Shown here in pieces: positions 3,395 through 60,837 of a DNA stretch of 64,000 nt. Location: NCBI GenBank assembly GCA_023251875.1, contig JAHEXY010000014.1, forward strand, positions 1-64,000, read 5' to 3'. Position numbers and translations under genes: made by a program. This DNA is from Bacteroidota bacterium (GTDB taxonomy: Bacteria > Bacteroidota > Bacteroidia > JAHEXY01). The notes beneath the pieces are model-generated. The model did not search any database, was not told the DNA's origin, and saw only the letters and a program-made list of their open reading frames with translations. Numbering within the stretch: position 1 is the stretch's first letter; each line of letters starts with the position of its first letter.

Positions 3395-5806
3395 ATGAAG
3401 TCATTTTTACCTGTTTTATTCATTACCCTTTTATTTTCTACAAATAATGTGTTAAACGCACAATCGGTTTGTGCAGATTCGCTTTATGGATCGCATAAAA
3501 ATATTGGGCTTTATGGAGGATATATTACTGATTTAACATACTCCTATCAAAACAAAAGATTATTTGCTACGGTTGAATCTCCTGCATCGTTATTTTATTC
3601 GGATGATACAGCTAATACTTGGAAACCGGCATACGTATACGATTCATTAAAATATGAATGTGGAGATAGAGGATGGGGAGGCGGTGCTTATAAAGTAATT
3701 GCCAATAGCCATAATTGGGTTGCAAGCATGAATAAAAATGTATCAACATCTTCATGTGTAGTAAGTTTTAATGGAGGTGATTCTGCAACTTGGCAAACTG
3801 CAGTTGATCCTTATCTATTAAATCAGCAAGGCTTAACGAAGGGTGGCGTTGTAAATGATATTGCTATTTCTGATTCTTTTTTATATGTGGGAGTTGGTTC
3901 GTATTTGATTAAAATTGATCAATCTGGATATGATCCTTTAACGGATGTTACAGATGTTGGGTTTAAGATTGTAAATGCTAATAGCAATTCAAAAATTATT
4001 GGTATTGCTGCAACAAATAATACAAGCGGATTTCCTATTTGTGTTATTGTTGATACTACCGGTTTTGGATCAACCGAAGGGCTTTTATATAAATACAATG
4101 GAAGTACCTTCTCTGCTATAACTTTACCTATTGCTTTAAATTTTGTACAAAAAGTTTTTACAATTTTTAATCAAACCACAGGCGATACATTATTTATTAC
4201 CGGTAAAGACAATTCAAATACTTCAAAAATGTATCGCACTTTTGACGGGGGATTAAATTGGATAGATATTTCAAATACAAACGATTCTTTGTTAGATGTA
4301 GATTATAGCCCATTGTGGTTAAACTATGCTCAATCCGGAACAATACTTTTTGCACAAGAAAATCAATTCTCCCCTAATTTGGGAACAACATGGCTTCAAT
4401 ACAATGATGGCAGTTCACATTATGGATGTGTACATCCGGTTGATACCAATACATGGATATCTAATTCACCATTGGGGGTAGTTAAAAGTAATAAAGGCCC
4501 AATGAATATATTTAATGTAGCAAGCAATATTAATCTCGAAGCAATTGACATTAATCATATAGCAAAAACATTATCTCATGCCACTACTTATGCAGCTACA
4601 CAATCAGGCTTGGCCTATACTTCAGCATATAATAATTCTATTATTGACCCTTATCAAAGATGGAGAGTGCCTTATGGTAAATTTCCTATTTCGCCAATAG
4701 AAAAACGAACCATGACTTCAGTAGCTATTGATGCTTCAGATTCTTTGCATGTTGTTACAACCTCAGAACATGAAATATTTTATTCGTTTTTTGGCCCGGA
4801 TAGTTTTAAACTTGCCCAATTTAATTTCTCATTTAATACAGCAGAATTTTTTACCGATATTGCCTTTGTAACACCGAGTATTGTATTAGCTGTAACAAAA
4901 AAGCGATCTGATAATGCTAATCAAAATTGTAATGTTTATAAATCAACAGATGCCGGAGCAACATGGAATATTGAATCAGTACCTGATTTTGAAAATGGAA
5001 ACACCATTGCAGTTAATTACGATAATAATGATACAGCCATATATATTGGAACAGGCTCAATTGAACTATTTAGTGATACGGGATATTTATGGAAATCTAC
5101 CGATTTAGGTGCAAATTGGAATAAATTTATTGGTCCTACACAAAGTGTTAGTCCTTTTAACAAAGGATTAGCCATACAAGATATTGTTATTGACCCCAGA
5201 GGCAATGATACTATATACATGGTTACCGAAGATTTAAATGATATTGTAAAATCTTATGATGGAGGAAATACTTATATCTATAAAAACGTAAGTTCAGGTA
5301 ATGGTGTAAGTGGAAGTGTAGCCATAAATAAAATTTATCCTGATTCTGTTTATTTTGGGTTGGGAAATAAATTGATTGTATACAATAACCCTTTAGATTC
5401 AGCACGAATATTATATTGGGGCATACCAGGAGAAACTTTAAATGATTTAAGCATTGGATCGGTATTGGTTGGTAGTACTACCGGGTTTTATGTAATTAAT
5501 TTAGATCCTGTTATTGATATGACAGGTATAAATGAAAATAAAACTGATGAAAATAAAAATATCATAGGATATCCCAATCCATCATCAGGCGAAATTATAT
5601 TTTGTATAAATAATGTTGAAAATAATAATGCCACATTATATATCAATGATATATTTGGTAATGAACTAAGCAAATCAGAAGTTAAAATTGTAGAAGGGAA
5701 ATTAATATGTGATCTAAATTCACTTCATTTATCAAACGGCACTTATTTAGTAAGTATTAAGCAAAATAAAAATATTTATAGATTTAAAATGATGGTTATA
5801 AAATAA
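3395..5806 (+). CDS. Secreted BNR/sortilin-like repeat protein with T9SS type A C-terminal domain
   Basis: Signal peptide; repeated STDAGATWN/SYDGGNTY motifs; C-terminal IGYPNPSSGEIIF...GTYLVSIKQNKNIYRFKMMVIK. Confidence 0.85.
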   Translation: MKSFLPVLFITLLFSTNNVLNAQSVCADSLYGSHKNIGLYGGYITDLTYSYQNKRLFATVESPASLFYSDDTANTWKPAYVYDSLKYECGDRGWGGGAYKVIANSHNWVASMNKNVSTSSCVVSFNGGDSATWQTAVDPYLLNQQGLTKGGVVNDIAISDSFLYVGVGSYLIKIDQSGYDPLTDVTDVGFKIVNANSNSKIIGIAATNNTSGFPICVIVDTTGFGSTEGLLYKYNGSTFSAITLPIALNFVQKVFTIFNQTTGDTLFITGKDNSNTSKMYRTFDGGLNWIDISNTNDSLLDVDYSPLWLNYAQSGTILFAQENQFSPNLGTTWLQYNDGSSHYGCVHPVDTNTWISNSPLGVVKSNKGPMNIFNVASNINLEAIDINHIAKTLSHATTYAATQSGLAYTSAYNNSIIDPYQRWRVPYGKFPISPIEKRTMTSVAIDASDSLHVVTTSEHEIFYSFFGPDSFKLAQFNFSFNTAEFFTDIAFVTPSIVLAVTKKRSDNANQNCNVYKSTDAGATWNIESVPDFENGNTIAVNYDNNDTAIYIGTGSIELFSDTGYLWKSTDLGANWNKFIGPTQSVSPFNKGLAIQDIVIDPRGNDTIYMVTEDLNDIVKSYDGGNTYIYKNVSSGNGVSGSVAINKIYPDSVYFGLGNKLIVYNNPLDSARILYWGIPGETLNDLSIGSVLVGSTTGFYVINLDPVIDMTGINENKTDENKNIIGYPNPSSGEIIFCINNVENNNATLYINDIFGNELSKSEVKIVEGKLICDLNSLHLSNGTYLVSIKQNKNIYRFKMMVIK

Positions 5807-52590: not shown

Positions 52591-52726
52591 ATAATTGTAC
52601 ACAATGACTTTAGCTGATTTTTTTGTGAAGATAGGATAGATTTTACAATCGATAAAAATGTAAAATCAAATACTTTATTCTTTTCATTGGCTGTTTTCAT
52701 GAAATCATAATTTGCTTCTTTGATTA

Positions 52727-53405
52727 ATATATTCCAACCTCACAATGCCAAATGCAGGTAAAGCGGTGTTCATTCCAGCCCAGCAAGCAAAAAATTCGCC
52801 AAGCCATTGTAGCACATTTTTATTATATGTTTATTTTTTAAGGTATAAAAAAGAGCTACAATGCCCTTCGGGTTGCCCAGCCAACACACAAGCTAAAAGG
52901 GCAAGCTTGTCATATTTTGTTGCTTTTGCAGGGCTTTCATTCACGGCAGCCTCTTTGTCCTGCAAGCACCTTCACTCATTCCCTTCACTTCAGCCGGCAA
53001 AGCCTGGCTTTCGTTTCGGTTCATTCGTTCAGTCGCTTGCAGTCCATCGGCTGCCCATATTAGGCTCGCCTGCTTTGTCGTTCGGGCTTCGGTCAAAAAA
53101 CATGGAATAATTTGATTTTTAAATTGTATGTTTTTTGCCCTCGTGTAGTTCACTTTACTGTGCCGATCTGTTGGTATAAATGGATTTTATTATTTGGCAC
53201 ATTAAAGCTCCTACATAGTTTGCATACGCCCTCATTTCATTACGTTTCGCGAAAAGCTTCACTTCATTCCATTCCGGGCTTTTATGCTGCACACCCTCAC
53301 TCCACTCGCAGGAGGCTCGCTGCACAATGGCTGCAAACCGTTTCATTTCGTTACGCTGAAGCTTCACTTCATTACACTATTTGCATCCATTTTCCCACGT
53401 TTGCT
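52727..53405. other. GC-rich, apparently non-coding conserved segment, candidate structured RNA (copy L)
   Basis: Overlapping ORFs on both strands, no convincing protein; conserved with 60132-60837. Confidence 0.5.
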
Positions 53406-53439
53406 CATATCTTTGCAAAAGATGATATTTTAGATTATC

Positions 53440-53640
53440 GTATTTTATTAAAACAACAATTTTTATGAGCTTAAGCAGAAAAGTAATCGGTACGCTGGCT
53501 AGACAAGTTTATTAAACTATGTTGACCTTGAGGCATCCCTTTTCTGTTTTTTCTTTCAAGTCTGAACAGTACTTAAAGATATAGAGCATCTATAATCTTG
53601 AATAATTATGAGCAAAGACAGTAAAAGAAATTAAGCTGAT
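53440..53640 (+). ncRNA. Candidate IS110 bridge RNA in 5' non-coding end
   Basis: Stem CAGAAAAG/CTTTTCTG (53476-53483/53539-53546) encloses ACGCTGGCT and CCTTGAG; ACAGTACTT and AAAGATAT at 53566-53582 match element ends. RNA ends approximate. Confidence 0.6.
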
Positions 53641-53661
53641 AGAATATAAAAAAAAGAAAAC

Positions 53662-54870
53662 ATGAAACATGGAAAGTATGGCTGTGGAATTGACATGGCT
53701 AAAGAAAAATTCGATGCCTGCTTAGGACTATTCGATATTAATCAAGGGTTTACCAAAGTAAGTGTTAAGCAATTTCCAAACACATCAAAAGGCTATCTTG
53801 AATATTTGGAATGGATTAAAAAACAATGCAAATATTCTTTGCCCGTTTTTCATTTGATGGAAGCCACTGGAATTTATTATGAAAATCTTGCTTTTTACTT
53901 GTATAAAAAGAAAGAATCCGTTTCGGTTATACTTCCAAACAAAGCCAAGAAGTACAAAGAGTCCTTAGGTTTTAAAACCAAGACCGATGGTGTAGATGCG
54001 TTAGCACTTAGCCGAATGGTTTGTGAACAAGTGCTGACTCTTTGGCAAGCGGCCCATCCAAATCTGTACAAATTATGCTTATTTACTAGACAGTTAGAAA
54101 ACGTTGTGGTACAAACTGGTTCCGTCAACAACCAACTTGAAGCTCTTTCGTTCAGCATGTATCCAAACAAACATCTCGAGAAATTACTTAAACAACAAAT
54201 CATTTTTTTTGATAAACAAAGAGAGGAACTGCTAGAAACAATTATCAAAATAACGGAGGAAGATGAAGAATTGAAAAGAAAATTTGCCAACATATTAAAA
54301 ATAAAAGGTCTTGGATTACAAGCTATCGCCACAATAATAGCAGAAACCAATGGCTTTGAATTGGTTGAGAATATATCCCAATTGGTAAGTTATGTAGGTT
54401 ATGATGTAGTAGAAAATCAGTCAGGTAATCACGTAGGCAAAACAAAAATATCAAAAAAAGGAAACAGTAGAATTAGAAGATGTTTACATTTTCCAGCACT
54501 CAATGTTGTGCGCTTTAAAGTAAAACCATTTGTGCAATTGTATGAAAGGGTTTACAAAACAAGTAATATTAAAATGAAAGGTTATACTGCAGTTCAAAAA
54601 AAACTACTGGTGATGATATATACCCTATGGAAAAAAGATGAAGTTTTTAATGAAAATCACTATCAAGATAAAATATCCAGAGATGATGAGAAGGAGCCTT
54701 CTTTCGTCTCTGCTTCGAAGAAGCAGCATAAAATATCCAATGATAACGATAAAAAAAACTCTTTCATCTCTGATTTACAGAAGAAGCAAAAAAAAGTAGC
54801 TCCGGTAAAAACCGAAGCTACACAAGATAAACATCCATCGAAGAATCGAAGTATGCCTTCTTTCGTCTGA
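53662..54870 (+). CDS. IS110 family transposase (DEDD RuvC-like + Tnp_20)
   Basis: GIDMAKEKFDACLG; LMEATGIYYENLA; TDGVDALALSRM; C-terminal LKIKGLGLQAIATIIAET...YVGYDVVENQSG. Confidence 0.93.
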   Translation: MKHGKYGCGIDMAKEKFDACLGLFDINQGFTKVSVKQFPNTSKGYLEYLEWIKKQCKYSLPVFHLMEATGIYYENLAFYLYKKKESVSVILPNKAKKYKESLGFKTKTDGVDALALSRMVCEQVLTLWQAAHPNLYKLCLFTRQLENVVVQTGSVNNQLEALSFSMYPNKHLEKLLKQQIIFFDKQREELLETIIKITEEDEELKRKFANILKIKGLGLQAIATIIAETNGFELVENISQLVSYVGYDVVENQSGNHVGKTKISKKGNSRIRRCLHFPALNVVRFKVKPFVQLYERVYKTSNIKMKGYTAVQKKLLVMIYTLWKKDEVFNENHYQDKISRDDEKEPSFVSASKKQHKISNDNDKKNSFISDLQKKQKKVAPVKTEATQDKHPSKNRSMPSFV

Positions 54871-55271
54871 TACAAATATAAATATTTTTGAAATAGTATT
54901 AGGTTTTTAACACAGTACCTCAGGGCTGTTTTACCGCTTACACACATAGCCTATTCTCTCTTCGAAAAGTATTTATCGACAAATCAGGAAAAATAAAAAT
55001 ACAGTATCAAATAAAAAAAATCGCAAAGTTAGTCGGGCTCACACAAGCCCACACACAACGGCTTTCAAGGTCAAGCCCTACGGGTTTTGATAAAAAAATT
55101 TACCTCCCCATCACATCAACATTATTCAACCATTAAATTATGTCATGGATTCAGCTGACTAATTATTATTAAATTTTTTTCTCAAAAACCTTGACAGCCT
55201 TGCATAGCCCGCCAATAAAAAAGCTTTCTTTTTCTTTTTTTTCCTTTTTTTTCTTTCTCTTTTAAAAATGG

Positions 55272-55739
55272 TTGCGGTGCACAAATTTTAAATCCATCAT
55301 TATGCTTAGATCAAAAATAAAATGCCACACGATTGGCAACAAGTATGAAAAGCCTCATTTCTTTATTTTATCGAAAGGAAGAAATGCAGGGAAACCAATG
55401 GTCGAATATTGCGCCAACTGTTATGTTTTTCTTGCAGATTCTGAAGAAGAAAAATGGCACTATTATAATTTATGTTTTGCCTTATGGCAGGGGAGGTATT
55501 TCATTCCTTTACTCGTAGGTTCTGTAATTGAGTTTATTCGTATAGATGAATTAGCAATTTCTATTCATCATGCAAATATCAATATTTCTCAAGATCTCGA
55601 AACTTATAAGGATTATTTAGATTACTTAAAGAAGCTAAATGAGCAGAGACTTTATTTAAAACAGCAAATTGCTTTAATACATCAGGTGGGGCAAGCATTA
55701 TCCTACAAAATGTTCAAAAGCAAAAAGGCCGCTCATTAA
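55272..55739 (+). CDS. Conserved 155-aa protein of inverted module (copy L)
   Basis: Near-identical to 59356-59823. Confidence 0.75.
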   Translation: MRCTNFKSIIMLRSKIKCHTIGNKYEKPHFFILSKGRNAGKPMVEYCANCYVFLADSEEEKWHYYNLCFALWQGRYFIPLLVGSVIEFIRIDELAISIHHANINISQDLETYKDYLDYLKKLNEQRLYLKQQIALIHQVGQALSYKMFKSKKAAH

Positions 55740-55757
55740 TAAGAGCGACCTTTCTTT
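55725..55757. terminator. Bidirectional terminator
   Basis: aaaaaggccgctcattaataagagcgacctttctttt between convergent ORFs. Confidence 0.7.
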
Positions 55758-55771
55758 TACATTTAACGGTT

Positions 55772-55957
55772 CTAATTTTTAATCTTCCGAGTAAGCCATT
55801 TTAAAAGTAATGAAACTAAAACACTAACTGTTGCTCCTAAAGTGGCAAGTATGATAGTTTTTAGTAAATCAGTTGACGTAATATTTACCACAGCTAAAGC
55901 TGTTCCTCCAATGGTTCCTAAAACGGTTCCATTTTCGATTGACTGATTTGTTTCCAT
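55772..55957 (-). CDS. Small membrane protein (copy L)
   Basis: 61 aa, TM segment; near-identical to 59152-59340. Confidence 0.7.
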   Translation of the reverse strand: METNQSIENGTVLGTIGGTALAVVNITSTDLLKTIILATLGATVSVLVSLLLKWLTRKIKN

Positions 55958-56193
55958 TACTCATTTGATAGATTTGGTAAATTAGTTTTCTCTCCATCAA
56001 CTGTAGTTTGTGCTACGGTACTTGCTACTGAACCGGCAACAACCATATAGCCTCCAACAGTTACAACTGCTGCAGGCAAGGCAACAGGAGAAGCAAGTAT
56101 TGCTCCTCCTACCGCTGCCAATACAATACCGACAGTACGTAATACTTTGAAGAATTTAGGAATGGGTGCTTTTATTCTTTCTACTAGTGTCAT
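55957..56193 (-). CDS. Small membrane protein, Ala/Val/Gly-rich (copy L)
   Basis: 78 aa; differs from 58916-59152 at 2 residues by eye. Confidence 0.75.
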   Translation of the reverse strand: MTLVERIKAPIPKFFKVLRTVGIVLAAVGGAILASPVALPAAVVTVGGYMVVAGSVASTVAQTTVDGEKTNLPNLSNE

Positions 56194-56219
56194 ATCAATT
56201 ACGATTTTAAGATTAATAA

Positions 56220-56969
56220 TTAAAGGATATCAACAATGTTGAGTGAATTGTAGGCTCCGTTTTTCATTGAATACTGAACTGCATTCACTTCTTGAAAAAA
56301 CTCAACTTGCAATAAGAATAGATCCGTTCCGGATCCACTTGGAACTGCACTAGGAGTTAAAAGAACATTTGTTGATGTTCCATCAATAGCCAGATTTACT
56401 GAACTTGATTGTTGAACATCATAAGTTCCTGCAACAAAATCTACTTTTGCCCAAGCTCCTTTCAAATTGATATGAGTAGATCCAGATGGAAATCTGATAT
56501 CATTTAATGGTGCAAGAGATGGAATACTTATTTCACCGGTAGCGGTATTTACACTGTATGGTTTAAATAAGATGCTTCCTAAAATTGCTTTGATGTTGAA
56601 ATCAAAACCATCTAACAAAGCTTTTGCATCCAGACCAGCAATTGCAGTTCCAACTGTACGAGAACCTCGTACATTGGTTGTGTCAAGATTTTTAATATCT
56701 GACATTACTTTGGTTAATCGGGCAGTTACTCGATTATCTGATGCAGTCATGAGCATAGAGCGCAATGCATCTCTCAGTAATTTACCTGAAGAAGCTGCAG
56801 CTCCAAATTCGGAACCGTTTTCACGGGTTCTGATAAAAGCATCGTCTTTTGCAATACGATCTCCATCTACTCCGCCTTTTTCACGAGCAAGATGTCCATC
56901 TTGTGTTTTGTAAAAAGAAATATCTCCGATAGTTCCTTTTAATTTAATAATCCCTTTTTGTTGTGCCAT
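56220..56969 (-). CDS. Conserved 249-aa protein, possible structural protein (copy L)
   Basis: MAQQKGIIKLKGTIGDISFYKTQDGHLAREKGG; near-identical to 58140-58889. Confidence 0.78.
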   Translation of the reverse strand: MAQQKGIIKLKGTIGDISFYKTQDGHLAREKGGVDGDRIAKDDAFIRTRENGSEFGAAASSGKLLRDALRSMLMTASDNRVTARLTKVMSDIKNLDTTNVRGSRTVGTAIAGLDAKALLDGFDFNIKAILGSILFKPYSVNTATGEISIPSLAPLNDIRFPSGSTHINLKGAWAKVDFVAGTYDVQQSSSVNLAIDGTSTNVLLTPSAVPSGSGTDLFLLQVEFFQEVNAVQYSMKNGAYNSLNIVDIL

Positions 56970-57210
56970 TTTTTTATGGTTTTTAGTTTTTAATATTTGA
57001 ATTTGTTGTAAACAATACTCAACCGCGGATTGATTTTGTTTATCTATTCAAAAATATATTACACCATAATGGTTATCAAATAAGGCGTTCCGTATGTTCC
57101 GATTGCTCCTCTTTGTTCCGAATTAGCCGTAGTATTTTTAATAAGAGTAGCATAGTTTTGTATATAGATAAAGCATAGTAAGAGTATAGATAGAGTATCA
57201 AACTATAAAA

Positions 57211-57408
57211 ATGCTAAACAAAAGAATCTGTATATATCCAAAAGACATCCAACTTATCACCGGTAGGACGGAAAGATATGGAAGAAAGTTATTGCAGAAA
57301 ATTAGAGTGTATTTAAAAAAGGATGAGCACTGCCTCATCACGATAAATGAGTTCTGTTCTTTTACTGGCTTACCTTTCACAGAAGTTGAAAAGTTCCTTT
57401 CAGATTAA
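57211..57408 (+). CDS. Small HTH-like protein (paralog 2 of 3)
   Basis: MLNKRICIYPKDIQLITGRTERYGRKLLQKIR; shares identical upstream DNA gtatcaaactataaaaatgctaaacaaaagaatctg with 29188 locus. Confidence 0.75.
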   Translation: MLNKRICIYPKDIQLITGRTERYGRKLLQKIRVYLKKDEHCLITINEFCSFTGLPFTEVEKFLSD

Positions 57409-57462
57409 ACCAACGCAATAGAGGGAAATATAAAATGTTTCCCATATGTTTCCCACAGAAGC

Positions 57463-57501
57463 AAAAAAGCCTTGTAAATCGTTGATTTACAAGGCTTTTT
57501 T
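57463..57501 (+). terminator. Intrinsic terminator
   Basis: aaaaaagccttgtaaatcgttgatttacaaggctttttt; 18-bp perfect stem. Confidence 0.85.
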
Positions 57502-57511
57502 AGCGTTATCA

Positions 57512-57526
57512 GTGATCCCGCTGGGA
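57512..57526. repeat. Putative right attachment core GTGATCCCGCTGGGA
   Basis: Direct repeat of 29484-29498. Confidence 0.65.
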
Positions 57527-57702
57527 AATTCCGAATCTTTGCAAGGCCTGTAAATATTGGTGTTTCAACAAAAACACAAAAAAAGGTGACCGATTAGGTT
57601 ACTTGAAACTTGTATTAATTTGATTGAATTCAATGAACTATTCTATGGGTGTAAATGTAGTTCAAACACGTAGTAAATACAAGTAAAATCATCTAAATTT
57701 TA

Positions 57703-57891
57703 TTAATTAATTATTCCTAATACCTCATCTTTTTTTAGGCCCAAATAATCACTTAGTTCTTGTATTGAAAGTTGCTGATGTTCTTTTTTATTGAGGTAGG
57801 ATTTTATTTTTTTCAATAGGTCGCGCGAGTAACGCTCACTCTTTCCCGTGATAAGCATAATATCTTTTGGATAAATAATTATTCTTTTCAT
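57703..57891 (-). CDS. Small HTH-like protein (paralog 3 of 3)
   Basis: MKRIIIYPKDIMLITGKSERYSRDLLKKIKSYLNKKEHQQLSIQELSDYLG. Confidence 0.7.
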   Translation of the reverse strand: MKRIIIYPKDIMLITGKSERYSRDLLKKIKSYLNKKEHQQLSIQELSDYLGLKKDEVLGIIN

Positions 57892-58139
57892 ACTCTATCT
57901 ATTCTTTATCTATAAGGCATTCATACATTATTTCTAGTAAACAATATAAAATTAGTAACAAGTGATGAGGAATAGAACTGCAAAATCGGCATAAACTAAC
58001 ACAAAGTTTATGATTCGGAAGTAGAGCATTGATAAACCATTCTGCTTGAAATACATTTGAATCATCAAACGAAATTTATTCGCGATAGAATGTAGTTTGA
58101 TTTAATTCATTTATAAATCACAAACTAAAAACCATAAAA

Positions 58140-58889
58140 ATGGCACAACAAAAAGGGATTATTAAATTAAAAGGAACTATCGGAGATATTTCTTTTTATA
58201 AAACACAAGACGGACATCTTGCTCGTGAAAAAGGTGGTGTAGATGGCGACCGTATTGCAAACGATGATGCATTTATTAGGACTCGTGAAAATGGTTCTGA
58301 ATTTGGCGCGTCTGCTTCTTCAGGTAAATTGCTGAGAGATGCATTGCGCTCTATGCTCATGACTGCATCCGATAATCGGGTAACAGCTCGATTAATGAAA
58401 GTAATGACTGATATTAAAAATCTAGACACACTCAATGTACGTGGAGAACGTAGCGTAGGAACTGCAATTGCAAGCCCCTCCGCAAAAGCTTTACTGGATG
58501 GTTTTGATTTTAATATTAAGGCAATTTTAGGAAGCATATTATTTAAACCGTACAGTGTGAATACTGCTACAGGAGAAATAAGCATTCCTTCTCTTGTTCC
58601 TTTAAACGATATTAGATTTCCTTCTGGATCTACTCATATTAATTTGAAAGGAGCCTGGGCAAAAGTTGATTTTACAAATGGAACTTATGATGTTCAACAA
58701 TCCAGCTCTGTGAATTTAGCTGTTGATGGAACATCAACGAACGTTCTATTAACTCCGGCTGCTGTACCAAGTGGATTGGGTACAGATCTGTTTTTATTAC
58801 AGGTTGAATTCTTTCAACAAGTAAATGGAGTTCAGTATTCAATGAAAAATGGAGCTTACAATTCTCTCAACATTGTTGATATCCTTTAA
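58140..58889 (+). CDS. Conserved 249-aa protein, possible structural protein (copy R)
   Basis: See 56220-56969. Confidence 0.78.
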   Translation: MAQQKGIIKLKGTIGDISFYKTQDGHLAREKGGVDGDRIANDDAFIRTRENGSEFGASASSGKLLRDALRSMLMTASDNRVTARLMKVMTDIKNLDTLNVRGERSVGTAIASPSAKALLDGFDFNIKAILGSILFKPYSVNTATGEISIPSLVPLNDIRFPSGSTHINLKGAWAKVDFTNGTYDVQQSSSVNLAVDGTSTNVLLTPAAVPSGLGTDLFLLQVEFFQQVNGVQYSMKNGAYNSLNIVDIL

Positions 58890-58915
58890 TTATTAATCTT
58901 TAAATCTTAAACGAT

Positions 58916-59152
58916 ATGACACTAGTAGAAAGAATAAAAGCACCTATTCCTAAATTTTTCAAAGTATTACGTACTGTCGGTATTGTATTGGCAGCGGTAG
59001 GAGGAGCAATACTTGCGTCTCCTGTTGTCTTGCCTGCAGCAGTGGTAACTGTTGGAGGCTACATGGTTGTTGCCGGTTCCGTTGCAAGTACAGTAGCTCA
59101 AACTACAGTTGATGGAGAGAAAACCAATTTACCAAATCCATCAAATGAGTAA
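58916..59152 (+). CDS. Small membrane protein, Ala/Val/Gly-rich (copy R)
   Basis: See 55957-56193. Confidence 0.75.
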   Translation: MTLVERIKAPIPKFFKVLRTVGIVLAAVGGAILASPVVLPAAVVTVGGYMVVAGSVASTVAQTTVDGEKTNLPNPSNE

Positions 59153-59340
59153 TGGAAGCAAATCAGTCAATAGAAAATGGAACCGTTTTAGGAACTATTG
59201 GAGGCACAGCTTTAGCTGTGGTAAATATTACATCAACTGATATAGTAAAAACTATTTTGCTTGCTACCATTGGAGCAACAGTTAGTGTTTTAGTTTCATT
59301 ACTTCTAAAATACTTGGTCCATAAACTTAAAAAGTTCTAA
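59152..59340 (+). CDS. Small membrane protein (copy R)
   Basis: MEANQSIENGTVLGTIGGTALAVVNITSTDIVKTILLATIGATVSVLVSLLLKYL. Confidence 0.7.
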   Translation: MEANQSIENGTVLGTIGGTALAVVNITSTDIVKTILLATIGATVSVLVSLLLKYLVHKLKKF

Positions 59341-59343
59341 TAG

Positions 59344-59373
59344 AAAAGGTCGCTCTTAATGAGCGGCCTTTTT
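59344..59373. terminator. Bidirectional terminator
   Basis: aaaaggtcgctcttaatgagcggccttttt. Confidence 0.75.
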
Positions 59374-59823
59374 GCTTTTAAATATCTTGTAGGATAACGC
59401 CTGACCCACCTGATGAATTAAAGCAATTTGCTGCTTCAAGTAAAGTCTCTGTTGATTTAACTGTTTTAAATAATCTAAATACTCTTTATAAGTTTCTAAA
59501 TCCTGAGAAATTGTAATATTAGCATGATGAATAGAAATTGCTAATTCATCAATACGAATAAATTCAATTACTGAACCTACGAGTAAAGGAATAAAGTACC
59601 TTCCCTGCCATAAGGCAAAACATAAATTGTAATAGTGCCATTTTTCTTCTTCAGAATCCGCAACAAAAACATAACAGTTTGCACAATATTCAACCATTGG
59701 TTTTCCTGCATTTCTTCCTTTCGATAAAATAAAGAAATGAGGTTTTTCATACTTGTTGCCAATCGAGTGGCATTTGATTTTTGATCTAAGCATAATGATG
59801 GATTTAAAATTTATACCTCGCAA
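59356..59823 (-). CDS. Conserved 155-aa protein of inverted module (copy R)
   Basis: See 55272-55739. Confidence 0.75.
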   Translation of the reverse strand: MRGINFKSIIMLRSKIKCHSIGNKYEKPHFFILSKGRNAGKPMVEYCANCYVFVADSEEEKWHYYNLCFALWQGRYFIPLLVGSVIEFIRIDELAISIHHANITISQDLETYKEYLDYLKQLNQQRLYLKQQIALIHQVGQALSYKIFKSKKAAH

Positions 59824-59879
59824 CCATTTTTAAAAGAGAAAGAAAAAAAGGAAAAAAAAAGAAAAAGAAAGCTTTTTGA

Positions 59880-60837
59880 TTGGCGGGCTATGCTAGGCTG
59901 TCAAGGTTTTTGAGAAAAAAATACTACCCGATTCAATTAAAAAATAAACAAAAGAGGGTGGAGATTTTTTTATCAAAATTCATCTTGACCTTGAAAGCCG
60001 ATGTGGGGGGCATGTGTGAGCCCGACTAACTTTGCGATTTTTTTTATTTGATACTGTATTTTTATTTTTCCTGATTTGTCGATAAATACTTTTCGAAGAG
60101 AGAATAGGCTATGTGTGTAAGCGGTAAAACAGCCTTGAGCAAACGTGGGAAAATGGATGCAAATAGTGAAATGAAGTGGAGCTTTTGCGTAACGAAATGA
60201 AACGGTTTGCAGCCATTGTGCAGCGAGCCTCCTGCGAGGGGAGTGAGGGTGTGCAGCATAAAAGCCCGGAATGGAATAACGCAAATAATAAAATCCATTT
60301 ATGCCTTAATGTTATTGCGTAATGAAATGAGGGCGTATGCAAACTATGTAGGAGCTTTAATGTGCCAAATAATTAAATCCATTTATACCAACAGATTGGC
60401 ACAGTGAAGTGAACTACACGAGGGCAAAAAACATACAATTCAAAAATCAAATTATTCCATGTTTTTTGACCGAAGCCCGAACGACAAAGCAGGCGAGCCT
60501 AATATTGGCAGCCGATGGACTGCAAGCGACTGAACGAATGAACCGAAACGAAAGCCTGGCTTTGCCGGCTGAAGTGAAGGGAATGAGTGAAGGTGCTTGC
60601 AGGACAAAGAGGCTGCCGTGAATGAAAGCCCTGCAAAAGCAACAAAATATGACAAGCTTGCCCTTTTAGCTTGTGTGTTGGCTGGGCAACCCGAAGGGCA
60701 TTGGAGCTCTTTTTTATACCTTAAAAAATAAACACATCATAAAAATGTGCTACAATGGCTTGGCGAATTTTTTGCTTGCTGGGCTGGAATGAACACTGCT
60801 TTACCTGCATTGGGGTTTGTGGGGTGGGAATATATTT
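59880..60837. other. Conserved, apparently non-coding segment, candidate structured RNA (copy R, intact)
   Basis: Conserved with left-arm segments flanking the IS110. Confidence 0.5.

What the first reader, a model, noticed from the sequence alone, without database searches (positions are those of the whole stretch)
53406..54920. IS110-family element with base-level ends and readable candidate bridge-RNA guides, calibrated by an empty site in the other repeat arm
The right arm preserves the uninterrupted target (plus sense ...CCCACGTTTGCTCAAGGCTGTTTTACC). The left arm reads ...CCCACGTTTGCT-CATATCTTTGC...ACAGTACCT-CAGGGCTGTTTTACC, giving a CT core at both junctions. The ~255-nt 5' non-coding end folds with stem CAGAAAAG/CTTTTCTG enclosing ACGCTGGCT (7/9 to left target ACGTTTGCT), a small hairpin (AGTTT-ATT-AAACT) and CCTTGAG (exact reverse complement of CTCAAGG: core plus right target). 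Downstream, ACAGTACTT (8/9 to right element end ACAGTACCT) and AAAGATATaGAG (reverse complement of the left-end junction CTCATATCTTT with one extra base) look like donor-loop guides. This is the target/donor two-loop logic described for IS621-type bridge RNAs.
Basis: partly seen in the sequence, partly recalled or inferred. Interest (0 to 1): 0.85.

Follow-up and report, generated by a model that had tools for sequence, protein, structure and literature searches.

The report
IS110 transposon with readable bridge-RNA guides

Summary
The element at 53406-54920 (1515 bp) is a complete-looking IS110 insertion sequence with an intact DEDD/Ser recombinase. The other arm of a surrounding inverted repeat keeps the empty target. 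Each element's left and right flank matches its own 5' guide region better than other elements' flanks do (z 8.7 and 11.5; 0 of 20,000 permutations). The signal survives reduction to representatives under 60% identical with the core left out. A covariance model built without this element finds it at 120 bits, E 1e-26. The fourth, AAAGATATaGAG, is rejected: it is one arm of a covarying hairpin. The right donor guide is AATTATGAG (53604-53612); its ATGAG complements CTCAT, and in relatives it changes with the donor core. The base after it pairs with target position 7 in 26 of 32 elements, as the IS621 handshake model predicts. Joined ends would rebuild a Bacteroidota -33/-7 promoter, though this copy's -33 box is degenerate. 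New member of a known kind; the clade-level regularities are the more interesting part. No activity was tested.

The parts
53406..54920 (+). IS110 element, 1515 bp, core CT counted once at the right
   Evidence: Empty-site alignment with the other arm; conserved ends in relatives
53397..53405 (+). left target ACGTTTG plus core CT
   Evidence: matched by LTG
53408..53415 (+). TATCTTTG, Bacteroidota -7 box (TAnnTTTG), also part of the right donor
   Evidence: consensus from PMC9723704 and PMC4747536
53466..53621 (+). bridge RNA body found by a covariance model built without this element
   Evidence: 120.4 bits, E 1.4e-26; only hit in the genome
53473..53549 (+). target-binding loop closed by stem 53473-53483 / 53539-53549
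   Evidence: Fold; arm-swap test z 9.6
53492..53500 (+). left target guide ACGCTGGCT (7/9 to the target)
53502..53523 (+). inner hairpin of the target loop
   Evidence: Compensatory pairs
53526..53532 (+). right target guide CCTTGAG (7/7 to the empty arm)
53533..53533 (+). handshake base G, pairs with donor position 7 (C)
   Evidence: 29 of 32 relatives have G here while the donor base is C; invariance, not covariation
53560..53619 (+). donor-binding loop closed by GTCT 53560-53563 / AGAC 53616-53619
   Evidence: Compensatory pairs
53566..53574 (+). left donor guide ACAGTACTT
   Evidence: Agrees with the right end over 7 nt in 40 of 42 elements, variants included
   Evidence: Compensatory pairs in 3-16 of 32 sequences
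53604..53612 (+). right donor guide AATTATGAG; ATGAG pairs with CTCAT
   Evidence: ATGAG/ATGTG follows donor core CT/CA in 30 of 30
53613..53613 (+). handshake base C, pairs with target position 7 (G53403)
   Evidence: 26 of 32 elements paired, 10.6 expected, 0 of 20,000
53662..54870 (+). IS110 recombinase, 402 aa, D11 E67 D109 D112 S254
54899..54902 (+). TTAG where 44 of 47 relatives have TTG: degenerate -33 box
54912..54920 (+). left donor ACAGTAC plus core CT (right end of the element)
60133..60146 (-). empty target ACGTTTGCTCAAGG in the other repeat arm

Best explanation
This is an IS110-group insertion sequence whose 5' non-coding end encodes a bridge RNA. Inferred steps: the excised circle joins right and left ends, rebuilding a Bacteroidota promoter that transcribes the RNA; the recombinase binds it; the target loop (LTG 53492-53500, RTG 53526-53532) pairs with the two strands of the target, the donor loop (LDG 53566-53574, RDG 53604-53612) pairs with the joined ends; strands are exchanged after the CT core, helped by handshake bases 53533 and 53613. 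Shown here: the anatomy, the empty site, structural covariation, and covariation of guides with target and donor across relatives. Transcription, the circle and catalysis are inferred from IS621 (PMC11208160, PMC11208158).
For: Recombinase family and catalytic residues. Empty site. Flank-guide permutation tests on 31 elements, z 8.7 and 11.5; fixed guide positions; per-position pairing; after dereplication below 60% identity and without the core, z 9.0 and 10.0. 21 of 23 structural pairs with compensatory changes. Independent covariance model, 120 bits. Left donor guide covaries, right donor guide follows the donor core, handshake base follows target position 7. Split -33/-7 promoter in relatives.
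Against: Two of nine LTG positions do not pair with the target; the -33 box is TTAG, not TTTG; only one copy in the genome, so no recent activity is shown. The donor-core covariation probably reflects one event in one lineage. Flipped-out bases in the right donor pairing of IS621 cannot be placed exactly here.
Confidence: 0.93

Rival explanations
1. A genuine bridge-RNA IS110 by descent, but this copy is decaying or very weakly active: the rebuilt promoter lacks a good -33 box and the left guide has drifted from the target.
For: TTAG in place of TTG; LTG 7/9; single copy.
Against: Recombinase gene intact with all catalytic residues; RNA scores 120 bits; RTG still matches the empty site 7/7. 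L038 has the same TTAG.
Confidence: 0.3
2. One reading: the right donor guide is AAAGATATaGAG (53575-53586) with one bulged base.
For: 11 of 12 bases complementary to the left end.
Against: The segment is the 5' arm of a hairpin with many compensatory changes and varies freely while the donor end does not; the ATGAG segment has the expected place and follows the donor core.
Confidence: 0.03
3. The guide matches are chance and the 5' end is only a leader of the transposase gene.
For: Single-sequence folding is unremarkable; 7/9 matches are common in 250 nt.
Against: Permutation tests on about 30 distinct elements and on dereplicated sets; fixed guide positions; covariance model.
Confidence: 0.01

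Closest known systems
IS621 (IS110 group, Escherichia coli) and its bridge RNA (PMC11208160, PMC11208158)
   Same: DEDD plus Ser recombinase, bridge RNA in the left end, target loop then donor loop, order LTG-hairpin-RTG and LDG-hairpin-RDG, CT core, handshake base, promoter rebuilt at the joined ends.
   Different: Right target guide is 7 nt with the core (4 in IS621; longer ones are noted in PMC11208160); Bacteroidota -33/-7 promoter instead of sigma-70; right donor sequence CATATCTTTG doubles as the -7 box; protein only distantly similar (phmmer E 1e-22).
ISCro4 transposase (solved structure 9t56)
   Same: IS110-family recombinase, similar score to IS621.
   Different: Distant in sequence; its RNA was not compared here.
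IS1111 group / seekRNA elements (PMC11187229)
   Same: DEDD recombinase guided by an RNA from a non-coding end.
   Different: IS1111 carries the RNA in the right end and has 7-17 bp subterminal inverted repeats; here the RNA is in the left end and the right end is only 50 nt.

Membership tests
IS110 group | DEDD RuvC-like domain and Tnp domain with catalytic Ser | tested here: met
   Pfam PF01548 and PF02371, NCBIfam NF033542 over its cut-off, D11 E67 D109 D112 S254 aligned with IS621
IS110 group | Long left end, short right end | tested here: met
   256 nt left, 50 nt right
IS110 group | Structured RNA with two internal loops in the left end | tested here: met
IS110 group | Target guides that covary with the insertion site | tested here: met
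IS110 group | Donor guides that covary with the element ends | tested here: met
   LDG; RDG with the donor core only, probably one lineage
IS110 group | CT core, no long target duplication | tested here: met
   Empty site; relatives
IS110 group | Promoter rebuilt across the joined ends | tested here: inconclusive
   Clear in relatives (TTG 44/47); TTAG in this copy
IS110 group | Circular intermediate and RNA-guided recombination | not testable with these tools
   Needs wet-lab work
IS1111 group | Bridge/seek RNA in a long right end | tested here: not met
   Right end is 50 nt; RNA model hits only the left end

The most novel reading that the evidence does not exclude
This Bacteroidota clade is a distinct bridge-RNA variant: a 7-nt right target guide, a split Bacteroidota promoter so that the RNA is made only from the circle, a right donor frozen because it doubles as the -7 box, a lineage with a CA donor core followed by its guides, and a Pontibacter subgroup whose target guides are aimed at the donor-guide segment of other IS110 bridge-RNA genes.
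Probability: 0.5. Interest if true: 0.6.

Novelty: new member of a known kind. Interest (0 to 1): 0.42.

Why it matters
It gives an independent, natural test of the IS621 pairing rules, including the handshake base, in Bacteroidota, with an empty site in the same genome for calibration. It also yields a set of readable guide-target pairs from that phylum, where I know of few characterised programmable recombinases (my judgement, not a search result).

Tried and rejected
Single-sequence folding gave no signal beyond shuffles. Rfam has no bridge-RNA match. IMG/VR gave no relatives; plasmids gave only Persicobacter. Aligning the outer target-loop stem column by column failed because the register drifts and was replaced by an arm-swap test. 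An E. coli sigma-70 scan found nothing above chance at this end.

Full report
Observation. The 1515-bp stretch 53406-54920 carries one open reading frame of 402 codons (53662-54870) that matches Pfam DEDD_Tnp_IS110 and Transposase_20, passes the NCBIfam cut-off for 'IS110 family RNA-guided transposase', and aligns with the solved IS621 recombinase with all five catalytic residues present (D11, E67, D109, D112, S254). It is the only copy and the only IS110 gene found in the 4.8 Mb genome. It sits in one arm of a long imperfect inverted repeat. Dropping it and aligning the flanks with the other arm gives the uninterrupted target, with one difference at the junction (CTCAGGG against CTCAAGG).

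Relatives. A scan of GTDB genomes gave 64 loci, mostly Bacteroidota and mostly 36-55% identical (higher only in short matching pieces); further genomes and Persicobacter plasmids were added. Nearly all intact elements begin (CT)CATATCTT and end ACAGTACC(T or A), which gives base-level flanks independent of any guide assumption.

Guides against targets. For 31 distinct elements with both flanks, each element's 9-nt left flank and 7-nt right flank matched its own 5' region better than swapped flanks (z 8.7 and 11.5, 0 of 20,000 permutations each). Best matches fall at fixed places: the left guide usually ends one base before the aligned start of the inner hairpin, the right guide starts two bases after its end. 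The window's ACGCTGGCT and CCTTGAG lie at exactly these places. Per position, right-guide pairing is strong at target positions 10-14 and absent at 15, so this guide is 7 nt including the core; left-guide pairing is strongest at positions 4-7. After reducing to representatives under 60% identical and leaving the core out, z is 9.0 (19 elements) and 10.0 (21 elements); at 50% it is 5.3 and 4.6 with 8-9 elements. Multi-copy elements (Pedobacter segetis, Persicobacter, Psychroflexus maritimus) hit the same motif with unrelated outer flanks.

Structure. RNAalifold on 32 left ends finds the inner target-loop hairpin, the donor-loop hairpin and the donor-loop closing stem; 21 of 23 pairs have compensatory changes. 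The outer target-loop stem drifts in the alignment, but own arms pair better than swapped arms (z 9.6; base composition may contribute). A covariance model from 25 relatives without this element finds 53466-53621 at 120.4 bits, E 1.4e-26; the next best hit in the window scores 13.7 bits, and it is the only hit in the genome.

Donor guides. ACAGTACTT (53566-53574) is the left donor guide: guide and end agree over 7 nt in 40 of 42 elements, including ATAGTAC and ACAGCAC variants. The segment 3' of that hairpin ends in ATGAG or ATGTG in nearly all relatives and follows the donor core exactly, ATGAG with CT and ATGTG with CA, 30 of 30; the CA group is Spirosoma and close relatives, so this may be one event. 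This is also where IS621 has its right donor guide (PMC11208158).

Handshake. PMC11208158 proposed that the base after the right donor guide pairs with target position 7 after strand exchange. Here it pairs in 26 of 32 elements against 10.6 expected (0 of 20,000), z 4.4 after dereplication; neighbouring offsets show nothing. In the window it is C53613 with G53403.

Promoter. TATCTTTG at 53408-53415 matches the Bacteroidota -7 box TAnnTTTG (PMC9723704, PMC4747536). In 44 of 47 right ends a TTG lies at one fixed position, which places it about 20 nt upstream of that box once the ends are joined. By analogy with the IS621 promoter rebuilt at the joined ends this suggests that the RNA is made from the circle. 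The -33 consensus itself is from my own knowledge. The window's copy reads TTAG there, so its promoter may be weak.

Verdict. Everything about activity is inferred.

Noticed in passing
L029:2076-2300, L025:2060-2480 and 3683-3740, L012:1-60, L028:1-60 (Pontibacter pamirensis): IS110 elements inserted at the CT core inside the left-donor-guide segment of other IS110 bridge-RNA genes. The inserted elements' own target guides match: L029 LTG AACAGTAAT vs AACAGTACT; L025 LTG GACAGTACT vs GGCAGTACT and RTG CATTAAG = reverse complement of CTTAATG, 7/7. It looks like one IS110 programmed against others' bridge RNA; recombination driven by the donor-like sequence of that segment is an alternative.
   Followed up: partly
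L010, L026, L031, L032, L036, L040, L048, L049, L050 (Spirosoma and relatives): Right junction core is CA rather than CT and the right donor guide reads ATGTG where the left end is held; the left junction keeps CT, TT, TA or CA. Unoccupied repeats ACGGTCSGCCG-NN-GCSG in the same genomes carry CT, TT or CA cores, as if each junction keeps the core of a different partner.
   Followed up: partly
window 52726-60836: Long imperfect inverted repeat (arms 88-97% alike in pieces) flanking about 1.2 kb; both arms carry a DUF6943 gene (55272-55739 and its partner). Its origin was not worked out.
   Followed up: no
window 54909-54911 and 53411-53413: In relatives the three bases before the left donor are mostly AAG and the left end has invariant CTT, resembling the short subterminal inverted repeat described for the IS110 group; this copy has AAC.
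   Followed up: no
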